Source: an uncultured Desulfosporosinus sp. (GTDB lineage: Bacteria > Bacillota > Desulfitobacteriia > Desulfitobacteriales > Desulfitobacteriaceae). From it: a stretch of 36,216 nt of DNA. The DNA is taken from the NCBI GenBank assembly GCA_927405585.1, contig CAKMJS010000025.1, forward strand, positions 1-36,216. Reading direction: 5' to 3'. Below the pieces are notes generated by a model. The model searched no databases. It was not told the origin of the DNA and saw only the letters and a list, made by a program, of their open reading frames with translations. This document shows, piece after piece, positions 3,154 through 29,611 of this stretch. Position numbers and translations under genes: made by a program. Position 1 is the first letter of the stretch; each line of letters opens with the position of its first letter.

Positions 3154-3193
3154 GTGAAACTGCACAATTTTTGAAAGCATATTTGCTCGCCAA

Positions 3194-3304
3194 GACTCGA
3201 ATAAGGACGTTCGAGATTAGAACACTCCATGACTCGAACATGAATGTTCGAGATTAGACACCGCCATGACTCGAACAAGGATGTTCGAGATTAGAACACC
3301 GCCA
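3194..3304. repeat. Three tandem copies of a 37-bp palindromic repeat
   Basis: Copies begin at 3194, 3231 and 3268, so the period is exactly 37 bp. Each begins GACTCGAA, contains the inverted pair CTCGAACA / TGTTCGAG around a 4-nt loop, and continues through GATTAGAACACCGCCAT. There is no unique spacer between copies, so it is not a CRISPR array. Related copies lie at 7793-7860 and 14217-14252. The region has no convincing gene. Confidence 0.8.
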
Positions 3305-3306
3305 TG

Positions 3307-3536
3307 ACGATAAGTGGATGAGCTTATCGCCACACTGCAACTCATTACGCATACTCCTGCAGTGTGGATTGGCTAGGTGTCGTGATTCAAGATCAAAAAA
3401 TATTTCCCGAATCCAGTGTATATATGATAACGCCTCGGGACACAATTTAATTAGTCTCACGTTTTCTTTTTATCCCCACTCCTCTCTTTACTTCACTTGC
3501 GACGAATACCTTGTCGCAAGTTTTTTTTATTTTTTA
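3307..3536 (+). terminator. Structured non-coding stretch ending in a Rho-independent terminator with no gene upstream
   Basis: This stretch holds a GATAAG/CTTATC hairpin, a 10-bp perfect stem (3330-3339 with 3358-3367), and then a plus-strand terminator: ACTTGCGAC at 3495-3503 pairs with GTCGCAAGT at 3513-3521, followed by a run of eight T and a second T run. No convincing plus-strand protein gene precedes the terminator. It may end a short RNA or be left from a lost gene. A second hairpin (AGCAGCGGT/ACCGCTGCT, about 3607-3632) has no strong T run and may mark the end of the acetyltransferase transcript. Confidence 0.6.
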
Positions 3537-12880: not shown

Positions 12881-13954
12881 TCATGCATGGCGGGAAACCG
12901 CAATTTTCCCTGGCTCACCTTCATGGATTTGGCCAACAACTGCAGCTGCAAGGGTCTTATTCTCCATTAATCGTTTAATCAGTACATTAACTCGTTCTTC
13001 TGGTACGGCCAACAGTAATCCTCCCGAAGTTATCGCATCAAAGAGCACGATTTGGACTTCCTCAGAAACATCCTGAGCGAATACGACCTTGCCTTCTAAA
13101 TGACGTCGATTGGCTTGTGTTCCCCCAGGAATGGCCTTTTGTTTAATACACTCCCAGACACTCTCGATAATCGGTACAGCATCGGCATATACTTCCGCAC
13201 AACATTTGCTGGCCTGAAGCATTTCATGCAAATGACCCAGAAACCCAAAGCCTGTCACATCAGTAACAGCATGGACTCCCACTTCAATGGCTGCCTCTGC
13301 GGCACCCTTGTTCAAGGTAATCATTACTTTAATTACTTCTGCTTCCGCTTCCGGTGAGACAATCCCTCGTTTAATCCCGGTAGTGATAATCCCTACCCCA
13401 AGCGGTTTCGTAAGAATTAAGACATCCCCTGGCTCTGCTTTAGCGTTCGAAAGCACATGGTCTGGATGCACGATACCCGTGACCGATAACCCGTATTTTG
13501 GCTCCGCATCATCGATCGAGTGTCCTCCGACCAGAACGGCGCCAGCTTCCCTAATTTTCTCACTCCCACCTTGAAGGATCTTGGCCAGAATCTCCATTTT
13601 CAGCTTCCCTACTGGAAACGACACGAGATTCATAGCTGTTAACGGTTTAGCCCCCATTGCGTAAATATCACTTAAAGCGTTAGCTGCAGCAATCTGCCCG
13701 AACGCATAAGGATCGTCTACCACAGGAGTAAAAAAATCTACACTTTGAACGATCGCCTGTTCATCATTTATTCGGTAGACACCAGCATCATCCGAAGTTT
13801 CCATACCAACCAGTAGGTTAGCATCCTCGATATTTGGAGGCAAATAGCGCAAAACTTGCGCCAGGTCCGCAGGACCTATCTTGCACCCTCAGCCCGCCTT
13901 AGTCGAAAACTGAGTCAACCGAACTTTATCTTGAATCGGATTCAGATCCATCAT
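12881..13954 (-). CDS. selD: Selenide, water dikinase SelD with selenocysteine at residue 22
   Basis: A 357-residue selenophosphate synthetase, which makes the selenium donor from selenide and ATP. A plain reading gives a start at 13852 (MRYLPPNIED), but that lacks the catalytic N-terminus. From ATG 13954, with GGAGG 8 nt upstream, the frame is open except for one TGA at 13891-13889, and reads TKAGUGCKIGPADLAQVL. This matches the conserved G(C/U)GCKI loop, so the TGA encodes selenocysteine at the position of E. coli Cys17, with the catalytic Lys at 25. Other family marks are VDFFTPVVDDPYAFGQIAAA, VGGHSIDDAEPKYG and DVTGFGFLGHLHEM. A SECIS-type hairpin follows the TGA. Confidence 0.96.
13850..13891 (-). 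promoter_or_regulatory. Bacterial SECIS element in selD mRNA
   Basis: Directly after the UGA, bases 13877-13863 form a perfect 6-bp stem AGGUCC/GGACCU with a UGC loop. UGC (13885-13883) and GCA (13859-13857) can extend the lower stem. The hairpin tip lies about 18-20 nt after the UGA, as expected for SelB recruitment. SelB and tRNA-Sec are not in the window. Confidence 0.75.
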
Positions 13955-14095: not shown

Positions 14096-14390
14096 GAGCA
14101 GAGCTTTGCGTTACAAAAGCGATTCTTCTTTGATCGAGCAGAAATCGAACTTGACTCAAGAGCGCATTCATACGCGGGGCAGTGAACAAGGACGTTCACT
14201 GCCGGCATCCGGCCAAGACTCGAACAGGACGTTCGAGATTAGAACACCGCCATAGATGGCAAGGCGCCGTGATGGCCGGTCTTCCGAAACACATGTGTTT
14301 CGCCCCGCACTCTAGCGAAGCAAGCTCTTGAGTCGTAGTTCGATCTGCGAGAGCAAGCAAGATCGCGTTGTAACGCAAAGCTCGCTTAAA
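14096..14390. mobile_element. MITE-like element with ~85-bp imperfect inverted arms between selA and selD
   Basis: The left arm (about 14098-14180) runs from GAGCTTTGCGTTACAA through ATCGAACTTGACTCAAGAGC to CGGGGC. The right arm (about 14309-14388) is its reverse complement with scattered mismatches and ends TTGTAACGCAAAGCTCGC. The centre holds CAGTGAAC/GTTCACTG and one copy of the 37-bp repeat (14217-14252). No gene or tRNA is seen in the 431-bp gap. The right arm overlaps the selA stop codon region. Confidence 0.65.
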
Positions 14391-16128
14391 CACGTTCTAA
14401 CGAGCTAAGCCGCCTCACAATCTCCTCCAGATCCCCCTCCAACAGCGTTCTCACATCAATGTGCACCCAATCCTTGTGAATCCGAGCTAAAATCGCGACT
14501 GGCCCTAAGCGCAAAAACCTTTCCAACTCAGTAGTACTTCCGCCTTTCAGGCGAATGGCGCATACCCAAGTAGGGAGATCAACTGTAGGCCATGCACCCC
14601 CTCCCACCTGTGAAACATCTTCTTTTAATGTAACGTCAATGGCCTTGTTCCCCTCTAAGAGTGACACAAGCTCAGTTGCAGTCATTTTCAGGGTATCTAT
14701 TGGGAGAGAGAGCATCCTCCAGACGGGAATATCCTCTATTCCTCCATTTTTATATAAGCGGAGGGTCCCTTCGAGGGCTGCTAAGGTCAATTTATCGACC
14801 CTCAAAGCTCGGGTTAATTGATTCGCCCTTAAACGTTTGACATAAGCTTGCTTTCCAACGATGATCCCTGCTTGGGGGCCACCTAGTAATTTATCTCCGC
14901 TAAAGGAAACGAGGGAAAGACCTGCTTTGACGGTTTGCTGAATAGTCGGTTCGAGAGGAAAACCTAGGTTTGTCCCATCGAAAAAGCTGCCACTCCCTAA
15001 GTCTTCCATCACGGGCAAGCCATGAGCCTCTCCGAGTTCCACCAAATCGGCTCCAGAAACAGAATGAGTGAACCCTTCGACCCGATAATTACTCGTATGC
15101 ACTTTTAATATCACGGACGTTTCCGGTCCGACAGCTGCCTCATAGTCTCTGAGCCAGGTTTTATTAGTGGATCCTACTTCGACGAGCTTGGCCCCTCCGG
15201 CTTTCAAAACCTCAGGAATTCGAAAGGAGCCACCCACTTCCACCAGTTCGCCGCGCGATACAATAACTTCTTTACCTTGGGCAAATGTACTCATCATCAA
15301 TAGTACTGCTGCTGCGTTATTATTGACTACCATAGCAGCTTCTGCCCCTGTGAGCTGACAAAGTAGCTCTTCAACATGGACATAGCGCGAGCCCCGCTCC
15401 CCTGTCTCAATATTCAGCTCAAGGTTACTGTACCTTTCAGCTTGTTCTGCTACGAACCGCGCAACCTCTGGTGCTAGCAAAGCCCTACCGCAATTAGTAT
15501 GTAAAACTACTCCAGTCCCGTTGATTACACGTCTCAAACTCGTCTCAGGATGGGTCATCACCTGTAAGAGCTCTGTTTTCAACCACGACCAGAAGGAGGT
15601 TTCAAACTCCGCAAGTGAACTCGTCCAACTAAAGTTGAACATCGAGACTTCGGTAGGGGACTCTACCCCTTCGCCGCTAAGTGTTTCTATTGGGAAGGCG
15701 GCTCGGCGAAACCCTATCCTACGCCGGTGAGTATTTCTTATGGGATCACGGCTTCGGCGATAGTCTATCCTTCGCCGGTAAGTATTTCTCTTGGGATCAC
15801 GGCTTCGGCGATACTCTCCACCGGAGACTATCGTACTGGAGACTATCGCACTGGAGGCTTTCGTACTGGAGGCTTTCGTCACCGAAGCGGAGTACGGGGT
15901 ACCACTCCCACTTGTAGAAGTGGGAGTCTTGCGCTTGGGTGAATCTGTAAAGTTTCGATTAATATTTTCCCTCGCTTTTTGTAGAACCTGTCGTACTCCC
16001 TGCGTTAAACGATGCAGGTGCCTCTCATTCGTCAAAAACGGACTGAATTCTTCCTCATGCTCCAGTCGAGAAATTACTTCATGTACCGCAGGAAGGGCCC
16101 GTAAACGCCGTTGTTTCTCTTGATCCAC
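14386..16128 (-). CDS. selA: L-seryl-tRNA(Sec) selenium transferase SelA with an in-frame repeat-derived insertion
   Basis: SelA converts seryl-tRNA(Sec) to selenocysteyl-tRNA(Sec) using selenophosphate from SelD and a PLP cofactor. The product is 580 residues, while the family is usually about 460-475. The N-terminal tRNA-binding segment (LRALPAVHEVISRL, to about residue 64) and the PLP core from RRVINGTGVVLHTNCGRALL (about 199 onward) are normal; the PLP lysine lies in SFSGDKLLGGPQAG. Between them, residues about 65-172 are encoded by repeat DNA: 5-residue repeats (KASST/IVSST type) and 17-residue Arg-rich repeats beginning YRRSRDP. The frame stays open. The start is GTG at 16128 with AAGGAG upstream. 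Whether the insert is tolerated in the decameric enzyme is unknown. Confidence 0.93.
   Translation of the reverse strand: MDQEKQRRLRALPAVHEVISRLEHEEEFSPFLTNERHLHRLTQGVRQVLQKARENINRNFTDSPKRKTPTSTSGSGTPYSASVTKASSTKASSAIVSSTIVSGGEYRRSRDPKRNTYRRRIDYRRSRDPIRNTHRRRIGFRRAAFPIETLSGEGVESPTEVSMFNFSWTSSLAEFETSFWSWLKTELLQVMTHPETSLRRVINGTGVVLHTNCGRALLAPEVARFVAEQAERYSNLELNIETGERGSRYVHVEELLCQLTGAEAAMVVNNNAAAVLLMMSTFAQGKEVIVSRGELVEVGGSFRIPEVLKAGGAKLVEVGSTNKTWLRDYEAAVGPETSVILKVHTSNYRVEGFTHSVSGADLVELGEAHGLPVMEDLGSGSFFDGTNLGFPLEPTIQQTVKAGLSLVSFSGDKLLGGPQAGIIVGKQAYVKRLRANQLTRALRVDKLTLAALEGTLRLYKNGGIEDIPVWRMLSLPIDTLKMTATELVSLLEGNKAIDVTLKEDVSQVGGGAWPTVDLPTWVCAIRLKGGSTTELERFLRLGPVAILARIHKDWVHIDVRTLLEGDLEEIVRRLSSLERV
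15615..15935. repeat. Family-3 hairpin element inserted within selA
   Basis: Both ends match the stand-alone element at 18497-18676 in the opposite orientation: CAACTAAAGTTGAACATCGAGACTTCGG at 15625-15652 and the CTCCCACTT/AAGTGGGAG hairpin at 15905-15926. Between them lie 51-bp units at 15676-15726, 15727-15777 and 15778 to about 15820, then four 15-bp units at 15821-15880. All unit lengths are multiples of three, which keeps selA in frame. Confidence 0.8.
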
Positions 16129-18496: not shown

Positions 18497-18676
18497 TATT
18501 CAATCATAAGACTCCCACTTCTGCAAGTGTAAGTGGTTACCCCACTCTGCTTCGGTGTTCATCCAATCGTGAGACTCCCACTTCTATAAGTGGGAGTGGG
18601 ACCTCGTGCTCCGCTTCGGTGGGGGTAGAGTCCCCCACCGAAGTCTCGATGTTCAACTTTAGTTGAACGAGTTCAC
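18497..18676. mobile_element. Stand-alone family-3 hairpin element (non-autonomous IS200/IS605-like?)
   Basis: The gap 18451-18677 holds two copies of a CTCCCACTT/AAGTGGGAG hairpin (about 18511-18531 and 18574-18597), a palindrome GGTGGGGGTAGAG/CCCCCACC, and a TTCAAC/GTTGAA hairpin near 18652-18667. There is no open frame. Hairpins of this kind at element ends are typical of Y1-transposase (IS200/IS605) elements and their non-autonomous derivatives. The same sequence is found within selA and in part within fliK. Confidence 0.6.
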
Positions 18677-26642: not shown

Positions 26643-28721
26643 CTAAGCGGTGACATTAATTCGATTATTTCCGTCCTGTCCAGGCGAGAAAGCGTTAAAG
26701 CCTAAGCTTGCTTCTTCATCTTCACTAAGGCTCGGGGTCGCTTCTAATGTCCCTCGGGATTCGTTCCCTTGGCGATTCTGCTGCTGATCTCCACCCTGCT
26801 GCCCCATTTGCAACGTACCACAGTTTACACCCTGATTGGTAAGCGTATGACGCAACTCTAAGAGTTGATTCTGAAGCATCTGACCCGTGGCTGGTTCTGA
26901 AGCATGAACTATGAGATGTACCTGACCATTTTCCCAACGCAAGCCAATTTGAATTCGTCCCAAGTCTGCCGGATGTAACTTAATCTCCAGTTCCTTCAGC
27001 TCTTGATTTCGGCTGGTAACTTGCTGCCGAAATACGTTAGAGATCTGTTCATACACTGGAATGGCAACTGTTTTTCCGTCAGCAACATTGCCCGTTGTGA
27101 TGTTCCCCACAGCACCAATACCCAAGCTTAGGTTTTGATCCTGAGTGACCTTCACACTGGAAACTCCAGAGGCTTCCACTAAAGCACCTTTGCTGCTCTC
27201 CTCGTTAGAAATCCCCTGAATATTTTTTAATGGGTTACTATTTCCTATGTCCACCCCAGCTAATTTCGGCTTAAGGTCTGACTGGAATAAAACATCTTTA
27301 CCTGGCGTTACAGCAGTTTCTGAGACTTGACTGCTACTCTTTGGCCAACTCAAGAGTGTATCGAGCCGATCATTTTTTGTCGGGAGCATTTCCTTGATGA
27401 CTTCTTGAGGAATGTTTCTTTCGTGTATTTGATTTAATATTTGATTCAGTATTACTCCCAACGGGAGAGCCTTCGTGTTAAGCTCTCTGTTGCCCGTACT
27501 CAGTTCTGTTGCTAGGAAATCTAACACTCGCTTAATGACCTTCTCTACTCCAGGTTGAAGTAGTATCCCTAACTCTGTTTCGTTGACGATAGACTTCCCC
27601 ACCGAAGCCTCGATGTTCAAAGTCTGTTGAACCCTTTCGTTCACCAATGAAATCGAATATGGCATAGAAGTCTGGATACTGGAACTAGGCTGATCGACTG
27701 CAGCTTTATCTGTTCCCAGTATCAAGCCCTGTACTATCCTTGCTATAACCTGCCGGAGATCCTCGACCCCTGTATTTGAACTTATGTAGTTCAAATTTTT
27801 AGAATGTGCTTGATCCACTACGGTCTCAAAATCACCTTGAGGAAGTGGTATATACTCCTCTAAGTTACCCACTGTTCGTCCATGGCTACCTTGAACAACG
27901 ATGCCTTGTCCATTGTTATCTTGACCAACATTTCCTTGTCCAGAGGTACCTTGACTAACGTTTTCTTGTCCAGAGGTACTCTGAGAAACGATGCTTTGAG
28001 CACTCGGAGCTCCCAGTCCATTATTCAGCACGTCCTCCGTCACTGTGACCGTCAGCCAATTTTGTATGATTTTCATTATTCCCTGACGTTCACTAGTTCC
28101 AGGTTCCAAAACCAATGGAGTTCCTTCTGGAGATAAGTCCGTAATTTTTCCAGAGAGTGCTACTAAAAGATCTGCGATTACCTGTCTATATTGATCCAAT
28201 TCCATCCTTACGGGGTTAGCCCCCTGAGGATTCGGCGTCGTCATCCCTGTCGACGTAAAAACCTCGTCTGAGACCAGAGAAGAGTCCTTCAGCATAGCTA
28301 ATTCAAAATTGTTACCCGAAATATTCGGTACCTTGGTCAATAATGCATTAGCAGTTGCTAAACCTCCAATACCCTGGCTCACATCATTTCCGGAATTGGC
28401 CTCCTTGCCTGCCGGAAGCGTTGGCTTAAAATAATTTGTGAGTACAAACTGTCCATACCCTAACATACTTCCCAATTCGTTCTGATTTTGTATGCTTGGA
28501 ACGGGCTTGTCTGCGCTTTGCGTCTCGTCTGATTCTAAGCTCGCTTTAAAGTTCTGCCCTTTCGAATCACCCTTGGAATTCATCAAGCCACTAAGCATCG
28601 ATGCAAATACTTCTGCAACGTTTCCAGGGCTGTCTGAGCTATCTTTTCCCTCAGGGTTCACTGTCTTCTCCACTGCACTGCCACCCTTTAAGATATCCGA
28701 AAGGACATGAATACCTGACAT
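26643..28721 (-). CDS. fliK: Flagellar hook-length control protein FliK
   Basis: A 692-residue hook-length ruler, longer than many relatives. The C-terminal Flg_hook domain is clear: LKELEIKLHPADLGRIQIGLRWENGQVHLIVHASEP. The N-terminal and central parts are low in conserved motifs, rich in Ser, Gly, Gln and Asn, as is normal for the ruler. Two oddities lie inside: a 10-residue tandem repeat (ENVSQGTSGQ/GNVGQDNNGQ types; DNA 27891-28000) and a 36-bp stretch at 27597-27632 that matches the family-3 element. The C-terminus is Gln/Gly/Asp-rich. Start at 28721 has GGAGG upstream. Confidence 0.92.
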   Translation of the reverse strand: MSGIHVLSDILKGGSAVEKTVNPEGKDSSDSPGNVAEVFASMLSGLMNSKGDSKGQNFKASLESDETQSADKPVPSIQNQNELGSMLGYGQFVLTNYFKPTLPAGKEANSGNDVSQGIGGLATANALLTKVPNISGNNFELAMLKDSSLVSDEVFTSTGMTTPNPQGANPVRMELDQYRQVIADLLVALSGKITDLSPEGTPLVLEPGTSERQGIMKIIQNWLTVTVTEDVLNNGLGAPSAQSIVSQSTSGQENVSQGTSGQGNVGQDNNGQGIVVQGSHGRTVGNLEEYIPLPQGDFETVVDQAHSKNLNYISSNTGVEDLRQVIARIVQGLILGTDKAAVDQPSSSIQTSMPYSISLVNERVQQTLNIEASVGKSIVNETELGILLQPGVEKVIKRVLDFLATELSTGNRELNTKALPLGVILNQILNQIHERNIPQEVIKEMLPTKNDRLDTLLSWPKSSSQVSETAVTPGKDVLFQSDLKPKLAGVDIGNSNPLKNIQGISNEESSKGALVEASGVSSVKVTQDQNLSLGIGAVGNITTGNVADGKTVAIPVYEQISNVFRQQVTSRNQELKELEIKLHPADLGRIQIGLRWENGQVHLIVHASEPATGQMLQNQLLELRHTLTNQGVNCGTLQMGQQGGDQQQNRQGNESRGTLEATPSLSEDEEASLGFNAFSPGQDGNNRINVTA
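27597..27632. repeat. Fragment of the family-3 element within fliK
   Basis: CCCCACCGAAG(C/T)CTCGATGTTCAA at 27597-27620 matches 18633-18656 with one difference and continues with a TGTTGAAC similar to AGTTGAAC. It lies in frame and encodes LNIEASVGKS. Confidence 0.55.
27891..28002. repeat. 30-bp in-frame tandem repeat in fliK
   Basis: Units begin at 27891, 27921, 27951 and 27981. The second and third units are the most alike (CCTTGTCCAGAGGTAC type). They encode a 10-residue repeat in FliK, and a change in copy number would alter the ruler length without breaking the frame. Confidence 0.75.
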
Positions 28722-29548: not shown

Positions 29549-29565
29549 GACTTACCCCCCTTTAT

Positions 29566-29611
<46 letters not shown>

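What the first reader, a model, noticed from the sequence alone, without database searches (positions are those of the whole stretch)
15615..15935. A palindromic mobile repeat has become an in-frame ~105-residue insert inside SelA
The segment between the N-terminal domain and PLP core of SelA is made of DNA that matches the stand-alone element at 18497-18676 at both ends. Inside it are 51-bp and 15-bp tandem units, all multiples of three, so the frame is kept. The product gains Arg-rich 17-residue and Ser/Thr-rich 5-residue repeats. A non-coding element turning into a protein linker in an essential step of selenocysteine synthesis is unusual and may be an example of repeat domestication.
Basis: partly seen in the sequence, partly recalled or inferred. 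Interest (0 to 1): 0.78.

Follow-up and report, generated by a model that had tools for sequence, protein, structure and literature searches.

The report
Mobile repeat translated inside SelA
A small mobile DNA repeat common in this bacterial genus has landed inside the gene for the enzyme that makes selenocysteine and reads as about 108 extra amino acids; the same repeat sits in frame in several other proteins, much like a phenomenon known from Rickettsia.

Summary
Window 15615-15938 (324 bp, 108 codons) is a long copy of a dispersed palindromic element inside selA. The insert DNA gives 66 matches in its own genome, itself included, and the element's consensus hits 35 of 60 relatives. Of 29 SelA orthologues compared, none has the insert; one, the sister on the SelA tree, keeps a 24-bp remnant at the same site.

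The basic element is 114 bp (52 of 91 copies with both ends), i.e. 38 codons, usually after TTNAT or a near variant. The one base-exact junction found shows no target duplication (GvpL). Such a landing does not shift the frame; one antisense frame of the consensus is open, and the sense frame is closed by one TGA that reads TGG in selA.

SelA is not unique: in-frame copies lie in IspH-S1 and a TPR protein of this genome, and in TcdA, GvpL and others in relatives; empty alleles were seen for four of these.

It works like Rickettsia palindromic elements, in a free-living Gram-positive genus. 'Domestication' is not supported: no function is shown, and 152 bp of the insert are 96% identical to an apparently non-coding copy. 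Transposase not found; translation not shown.

The parts
14386..16128 (-). selA (L-seryl-tRNA(Sec) selenium transferase), 580 codons, GTG start; Pfam SelA at residues 201-562
   Evidence: no second SelA among the 11 of 19 own-genome matches that one search lists (the other 8 are weaker than about 1e-8)
15615..15938 (-). mobile element, long version, 324 bp = SelA residues 64-171; begins CCAAGCG, ends GAGTTCAC
   Evidence: not in 29 of 29 orthologues compared, a 24-bp remnant in one of them
15939..15943 (-). target motif left of the element (TTCAC here; TTCAT inferred for the ancestor)
   Evidence: TTNAT in 41 of 91 copies, AT or ATC at the junction in 83 of 91
15904..15927 (-). left-end hairpin ACTCCCACTTCTACAAGTGGGAGT
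15823..15879 (-). 15-bp tandem array (Ser/Thr-rich 5-residue repeats)
   Evidence: such units are also in other long copies
15660..15817 (-). 51-bp tandem array, 3.1 copies (Arg-rich 17-residue repeats)
   Evidence: the unit occurs without the element's ends at several other loci
15615..15669 (-). right-end module with palindrome GTTCAACTTTAGTTGGAC and terminus GAGTTCAC
15625..15627 (-). TGG codon in the right palindrome where most copies have TGA (stop) in this frame
   Evidence: census of 28 own-genome right ends, selA included: 18 TGA, 8 TGG, 2 other
18563..18676 (+). stand-alone full-length copy (114 bp), TTCAT to its left
18508..18557 (+). partial copy (left half) abutting the full copy

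Best explanation
The insert is a copy of a small, probably non-autonomous, mobile palindromic element. It inserts 3' of TTNAT-like sites, apparently without duplicating the target, and its basic form adds 114 bp (38 codons), so a landing inside a gene does not shift the frame; whether it is read through depends on orientation and phase. It landed in selA in the sense frame, in the hinge between the N-terminal tRNA-binding helices and the PLP core, where extra chain is tolerated. The copy there reads TGG at the one conserved sense-frame stop. The long version carries 15-bp and 51-bp tandem units, which bring the linker to 108 residues; the sister lineage has only 8 codons of it. The protein is probably made with the linker and still works. 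Shown: the element family, presence/absence, the open frame, purifying selection on the core. Inferred: translation, tolerance, a single ancestral insertion, mode of transposition. The transposase is unknown.
For: Many genomic copies. No element in 28 of 29 SelA orthologues and a 24-bp remnant in the other, G011, which is sister on the SelA core tree (95/84). Base-exact empty/filled junction in GvpL, and empty alleles for TcdA, IspH-S1 and a small G013 protein. 52 of 91 copies are exactly 114 bp, and 89 of 91 have T next to the right end. In-frame copies in several other proteins. SelA core dN/dS 0.083-0.109 on window pairs against 0.067-0.090 on pairs of relatives. SelD of the same window has an in-frame TGA in a GUGCK motif and a SelB over the cut-off is present, so the Sec pathway looks in use, and no second SelA was listed. 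In the AlphaFold model residues 62-163 have pLDDT under 50, between two helices.
Against: No transcript or protein data. No transposase gene whose flanks carry both ends was found. The insert's right half is 96% identical to another copy although the insertion appears to predate a dS 0.92 split; this needs gene conversion, recent re-insertion or two independent insertions. In the own genome only 2 of 20 census copies are 114 bp and 9 of 20 are multiples of three, so copies there are much altered. TcdA and SelA junctions fit an exact insertion only if one or two bases changed; IspH-S1 fits less well. Window dN is slightly higher than between relatives (0.078-0.093 against 0.057-0.074). The AlphaFold model is weak (mean pLDDT 54.5, pTM 0.40, 22 sequences).
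Confidence: 0.82

Rival explanations
1. The insert has been domesticated: the Arg-rich repeats help SelA bind tRNA(Sec) or tune its activity, and selection keeps them.
For: It lies next to the N-terminal domain, which binds tRNA(Sec) (passages of PMC4607533); it is rich in Arg (YRRSRDPKRNTYRRRID repeats); it is open over 108 codons; G011 keeps a remnant.
Against: 28 of 29 orthologues compared do without it and G011 has only 8 codons. The sequence is near-identical to a copy without sign of coding. The element lands in unrelated proteins.
Confidence: 0.08
2. Assembly artefact: the assembler joined a repeat copy into selA.
For: The element is a high-copy repeat and the genome is a draft of 181 contigs; no reads could be checked.
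Against: The junction falls at a TTNAT-type site, the frame is kept over 108 codons with the usual stop replaced, and a relative has a remnant at the same place. Similar in-frame insertions occur in other genomes.
Confidence: 0.03
3. The insert is removed or skipped (RNA splicing or ribosome bypass), so SelA is made at normal length.
For: The element is highly structured as RNA (minimum free energy -57.9 kcal/mol for the 120-nt consensus).
Against: No Rfam match in the window at gathering thresholds. The in-gene copies read keep a length in multiples of three and have no stop, which neither splicing nor bypass requires (these loci were partly picked for open frames). The long ORF in L049 shows the same.
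Confidence: 0.03
4. selA is decaying and the insert is an early lesion.
For: Slightly raised dN on window pairs.
Against: dN/dS 0.083-0.109 on window pairs; K413 in SGDK, by recall the PLP lysine, is among the invariant columns; selenoprotein SelD and SelB are present and no second SelA was listed.
Confidence: 0.03

Closest known systems
Rickettsia palindromic elements (RPE; Ogata et al. 2000, 2002)
   Same: Short palindromic mobile DNA (about 150 bp) found in frame in unrelated genes, with an ORF for a conserved peptide (passages of the review PMC10969869).
   Different: Another phylum and a free-living genus. Here a basic length of 114 bp, a TTNAT-like target, one exact empty site and a tandem-expanded long form. 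RPE sequences were not compared; the two element peptides match no Pfam family at E 0.01.
Protein-coding palindromic repeats of Wolbachia and Methanocaldococcus jannaschii
   Same: Same idea; a passage of PMC2996958 cites them as palindromic coding sequences integrated in assorted genes.
   Different: Known here only from that passage and reference titles; no sequences compared.
IS200/IS605 palindrome-associated elements (PATE)
   Same: Hairpin near each end, insertion 3' of a short motif, no target duplication at the one exact junction, no gene of its own (family description in passages of PMC7290912).
   Different: No tnpA or tnpB with both ends found in the loci examined; T is nearly always present at the right junction (89 of 91).
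PARCEL repeats (PMC2996958)
   Same: Palindromic DNA read as protein repeats.
   Different: A 25-residue amphipathic motif in tandem arrays in ORFs without assigned functions (abstract read), not an insert in housekeeping enzymes.

Membership tests
Rickettsia-palindromic-element-like (as a kind, not the RPE families) | Dispersed palindromic element present both between and inside genes | tested here: met
Rickettsia-palindromic-element-like (as a kind, not the RPE families) | In frame in genes whose homologues lack it | tested here: met
   SelA; TcdA, IspH-S1, GvpL and the L208 protein
Rickettsia-palindromic-element-like (as a kind, not the RPE families) | Sequence homology to a named RPE family | not tested
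   RPE sequences were not fetched; Pfam has no match to the two element peptides
Rickettsia-palindromic-element-like (as a kind, not the RPE families) | Insert present in the mature protein | not testable with these tools
   needs proteomics
IS200/IS605 PATE | Subterminal hairpins at both ends | tested here: met
   fold: left ACTCCCACTT/AAGTGGGAGT, right GTTCAAC/GTTGAAC
IS200/IS605 PATE | No target duplication; insertion 3' of a tetra- or pentanucleotide | tested here: inconclusive
   one exact junction (GvpL); TTNAT in 41 of 91 copies, AT or ATC in 83 of 91; SelA and TcdA fit only if one or two bases changed
IS200/IS605 PATE | Matching ends on a TnpA/TnpB element | tested here: not met
   not found at 30 Y1 loci nor at 30 TnpB loci (3 own, 27 of 46 rows in relatives), except one copy about 0.4 kb beyond the TnpB match of L097
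SelA | Pfam SelA domain, N-terminal domain and PLP lysine | tested here: met
   PF03841 E 9e-143; residues 1-63 aligned in relatives; K413 invariant (its role is recalled)

The most novel reading that the evidence does not exclude
The element is adapted to live inside genes: its 38-codon length and duplication-free insertion make it frame-neutral, and an open frame is kept by selection, so it spreads through coding DNA as a harmless peptide, and its tandem-expanding long form supplies new, evolvable linkers (SelA, the TPR membrane protein) in important proteins.
Probability: 0.25. Interest if true: 0.82.

Novelty: new variant of a known kind. Interest (0 to 1): 0.6.

Why it matters
In-frame palindromic elements are reported, in what was read here, from Rickettsia, Wolbachia and one archaeon. 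A family with hundreds of matches across a free-living, partly cultured Gram-positive genus, with empty alleles, one exact junction and a frame-neutral basic length, would make it possible to test how such DNA moves and how proteins tolerate and grow new linkers. SelA, a ring of ten subunits that must bind tRNA, is a demanding host for a 108-residue insert.

Tried and rejected
Autonomous partner: own TnpB and Y1 loci (3 and 2), 27 TnpB loci of relatives (of 46 rows) and 28 Y1 loci of five genomes were checked for the element's ends. Only L097 carries a copy, about 0.4 kb beyond its TnpB match; taken as coincidence. Rfam gave nothing in the window at gathering thresholds. No match of the stand-alone copy in the phage or plasmid records. 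No Pfam match to the element peptides.

Counts depend on how loci were chosen. Of the 91 copies, some loci were fetched because one search showed a long open frame. In less selected sets, 20 own-genome copies had 2 of 114 bp and 9 in multiples of three, and 29 copies from the 40-locus G013 sample had 25 and 26; the own-genome set leaves out copies filed under later locus ids. Of the 11 copies whose joined flanks gave an ORF of 200 codons or more, 8 were in frame and open, 2 kept the frame but had a stop, 1 shifted it; that ratio is biased upward by the choice of loci. In one search, 22 loci were examined and 20 gave an ORF match; L211 and L214 gave none; L209 is probably not a real gene.

Papers: RPE facts come from passages of a review (PMC10969869) and of PMC2635572; the original RPE paper asked for is not held. 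Searches listed no paper that, by title and abstract start, describes this element; this covers the held library only, and the listed papers were not all read.

Full report
What is there. selA lies at 16128..14386 on the minus strand (580 codons). Residues 64-171 are encoded by 15615-15938, 324 bp. The insert DNA hits the own genome 66 times, itself included (40 of 173 first-look candidates scored), and the 120-nt consensus hits 35 of 60 relatives (7 of 19 genera). Titles of matching records name the closest relatives as Desulfosporosinus; the window's own record has no name.

Anatomy. Aligned copies give CCAATCGTGAG-hairpin...palindrome-GAGTTCAC. A census over fetched loci found 91 distinct copies with both ends: 52 of 91 are exactly 114 bp and 69 of 91 are multiples of three, 57 of these 69 not in an open frame across the site; 89 of 91 have T right of the element; the left flank is TTNAT in 41 of 91, and 83 of 91 end in AT or ATC. 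In the own genome only 2 of 20 copies are 114 bp. Long copies (172-324 bp) carry 15-bp and 51-bp units in the middle, and the 51-bp unit also occurs without the ends, so the long form looks composite.

SelA with and without. Of 29 orthologues compared none has the long insert, and in a DNA comparison of the linker region only L010 shows a trace of the element. L036 and L037, from other genera, have longer linkers without a match; L021 and L022 have two extra residues. Many genus members read D-S-F-x-E-F there; GAT TCA TTT GCT as ancestor would give an insertion exactly after TTCAT. On the core tree, which leaves out the insert, the window and L010 are sisters (95/84), so one ancestral insertion is the simplest reading. 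Against a quiet old insert: 152 bp are 96% identical to another copy (L039), while window and L010 cores differ at dS 0.92. Gene conversion, re-insertion or two separate landings remain open.

Does SelA still work? No second SelA appears among the 11 of 19 own matches that one search lists. Core dN/dS on window pairs is 0.083-0.109, on pairs of relatives 0.067-0.090; window dN is slightly higher. SelD in the same window has an in-frame TGA at GUGCK, and SelB is present over its cut-off. AlphaFold with 22 sequences is weak overall (pLDDT 54.5) but leaves 62-163 without structure between helices 35-61 and 172-192. The N-terminal domain binds tRNA(Sec) and the enzyme is a homodecamer (passages of PMC4607533).

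Not only SelA. The consensus is open in one antisense frame (SELVQLKLNIETSVGDSTPTEAEHGVPLPLVEVGVSRLDE) and in one sense frame but for a TGA. In 28 own-genome right ends, selA included, 18 have TGA and 8 have TGG there. A search for the antisense peptide matched 25 of 28 genus genomes, the own one included. Reading candidate loci (22 loci, 20 with a match) showed in-frame copies inside IspH-S1 (own genome), a TPR membrane protein (L206 in G011; in the own genome L049, a long diverged copy), a two-domain ABC ATPase, TcdA/ThiF, an MptE-like/methyltransferase protein, GvpL and a small protein (names). Others are near N-termini (copper ATPase, ECF ATPase; and, on weak matches or by eye, radical SAM, cytochrome, deacetylase, lipoprotein) or at C-termini (L207, L210, L212, L213 and the ABC ATPase L073). 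Among the proteins read, only SelA, L073 and L207 use the sense frame.

Empty alleles (11 genomes). TcdA: filled in G013; its flanks abut in nine others; G024 gave only a distant match. IspH-S1: filled in G000; flanks abut in eight others; in G011 and G022 the insert and a further stretch of about 70-75 residues are absent. GvpL: filled in G021; empty in G017 and G011, and by spacing in G013. The L208 protein: filled in G013; empty in G015. At DNA level GvpL is base-exact: TTCAT|TAGC becomes TTCAT[CCAATCG...GAGTTCAC]TAGC. TcdA differs at two bases and IspH-S1 at more; the L208 case was not read at DNA level.

Known or new. RPEs are the precedent (review passages), with Wolbachia and M. jannaschii cases cited in a passage. 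The geometry resembles IS200/IS605 ends-only elements, but no partner with these ends was found, so membership is not claimed. Paper searches listed nothing that describes this family in the held library.

Verdict. The wider finding is an RPE-like element family in Desulfosporosinus and neighbours whose basic length keeps a host gene in frame.

Noticed in passing
window 12881-13921 (-): SelD appears to be a selenoprotein: in-frame TGA in GUGCK; the plain ORF list starts it downstream.
   Followed up: partly
L049:715-1791 (-), L206:994-1977 (+), L164-L181: The linker of a TPR membrane protein is hypervariable across the genus: element-derived in two genomes, other, often Glu/Val-rich, sequence in the rest.
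   Followed up: partly
   Followed up: partly
L044, L047, L050, L051, L052, L057, L065: The 51-bp middle unit occurs without the element's ends, suggesting a second repeat family nested in the long form.
   Followed up: no
window 3188-3308, 27878-27979, 29565-29611: Other tandem arrays with periods 37, 30 and 7 bp.
   Followed up: no
G009:C262 3420-4726: SelA of this draft genome matches in two frames with a gap between query residues 315 and 379.
   Followed up: no
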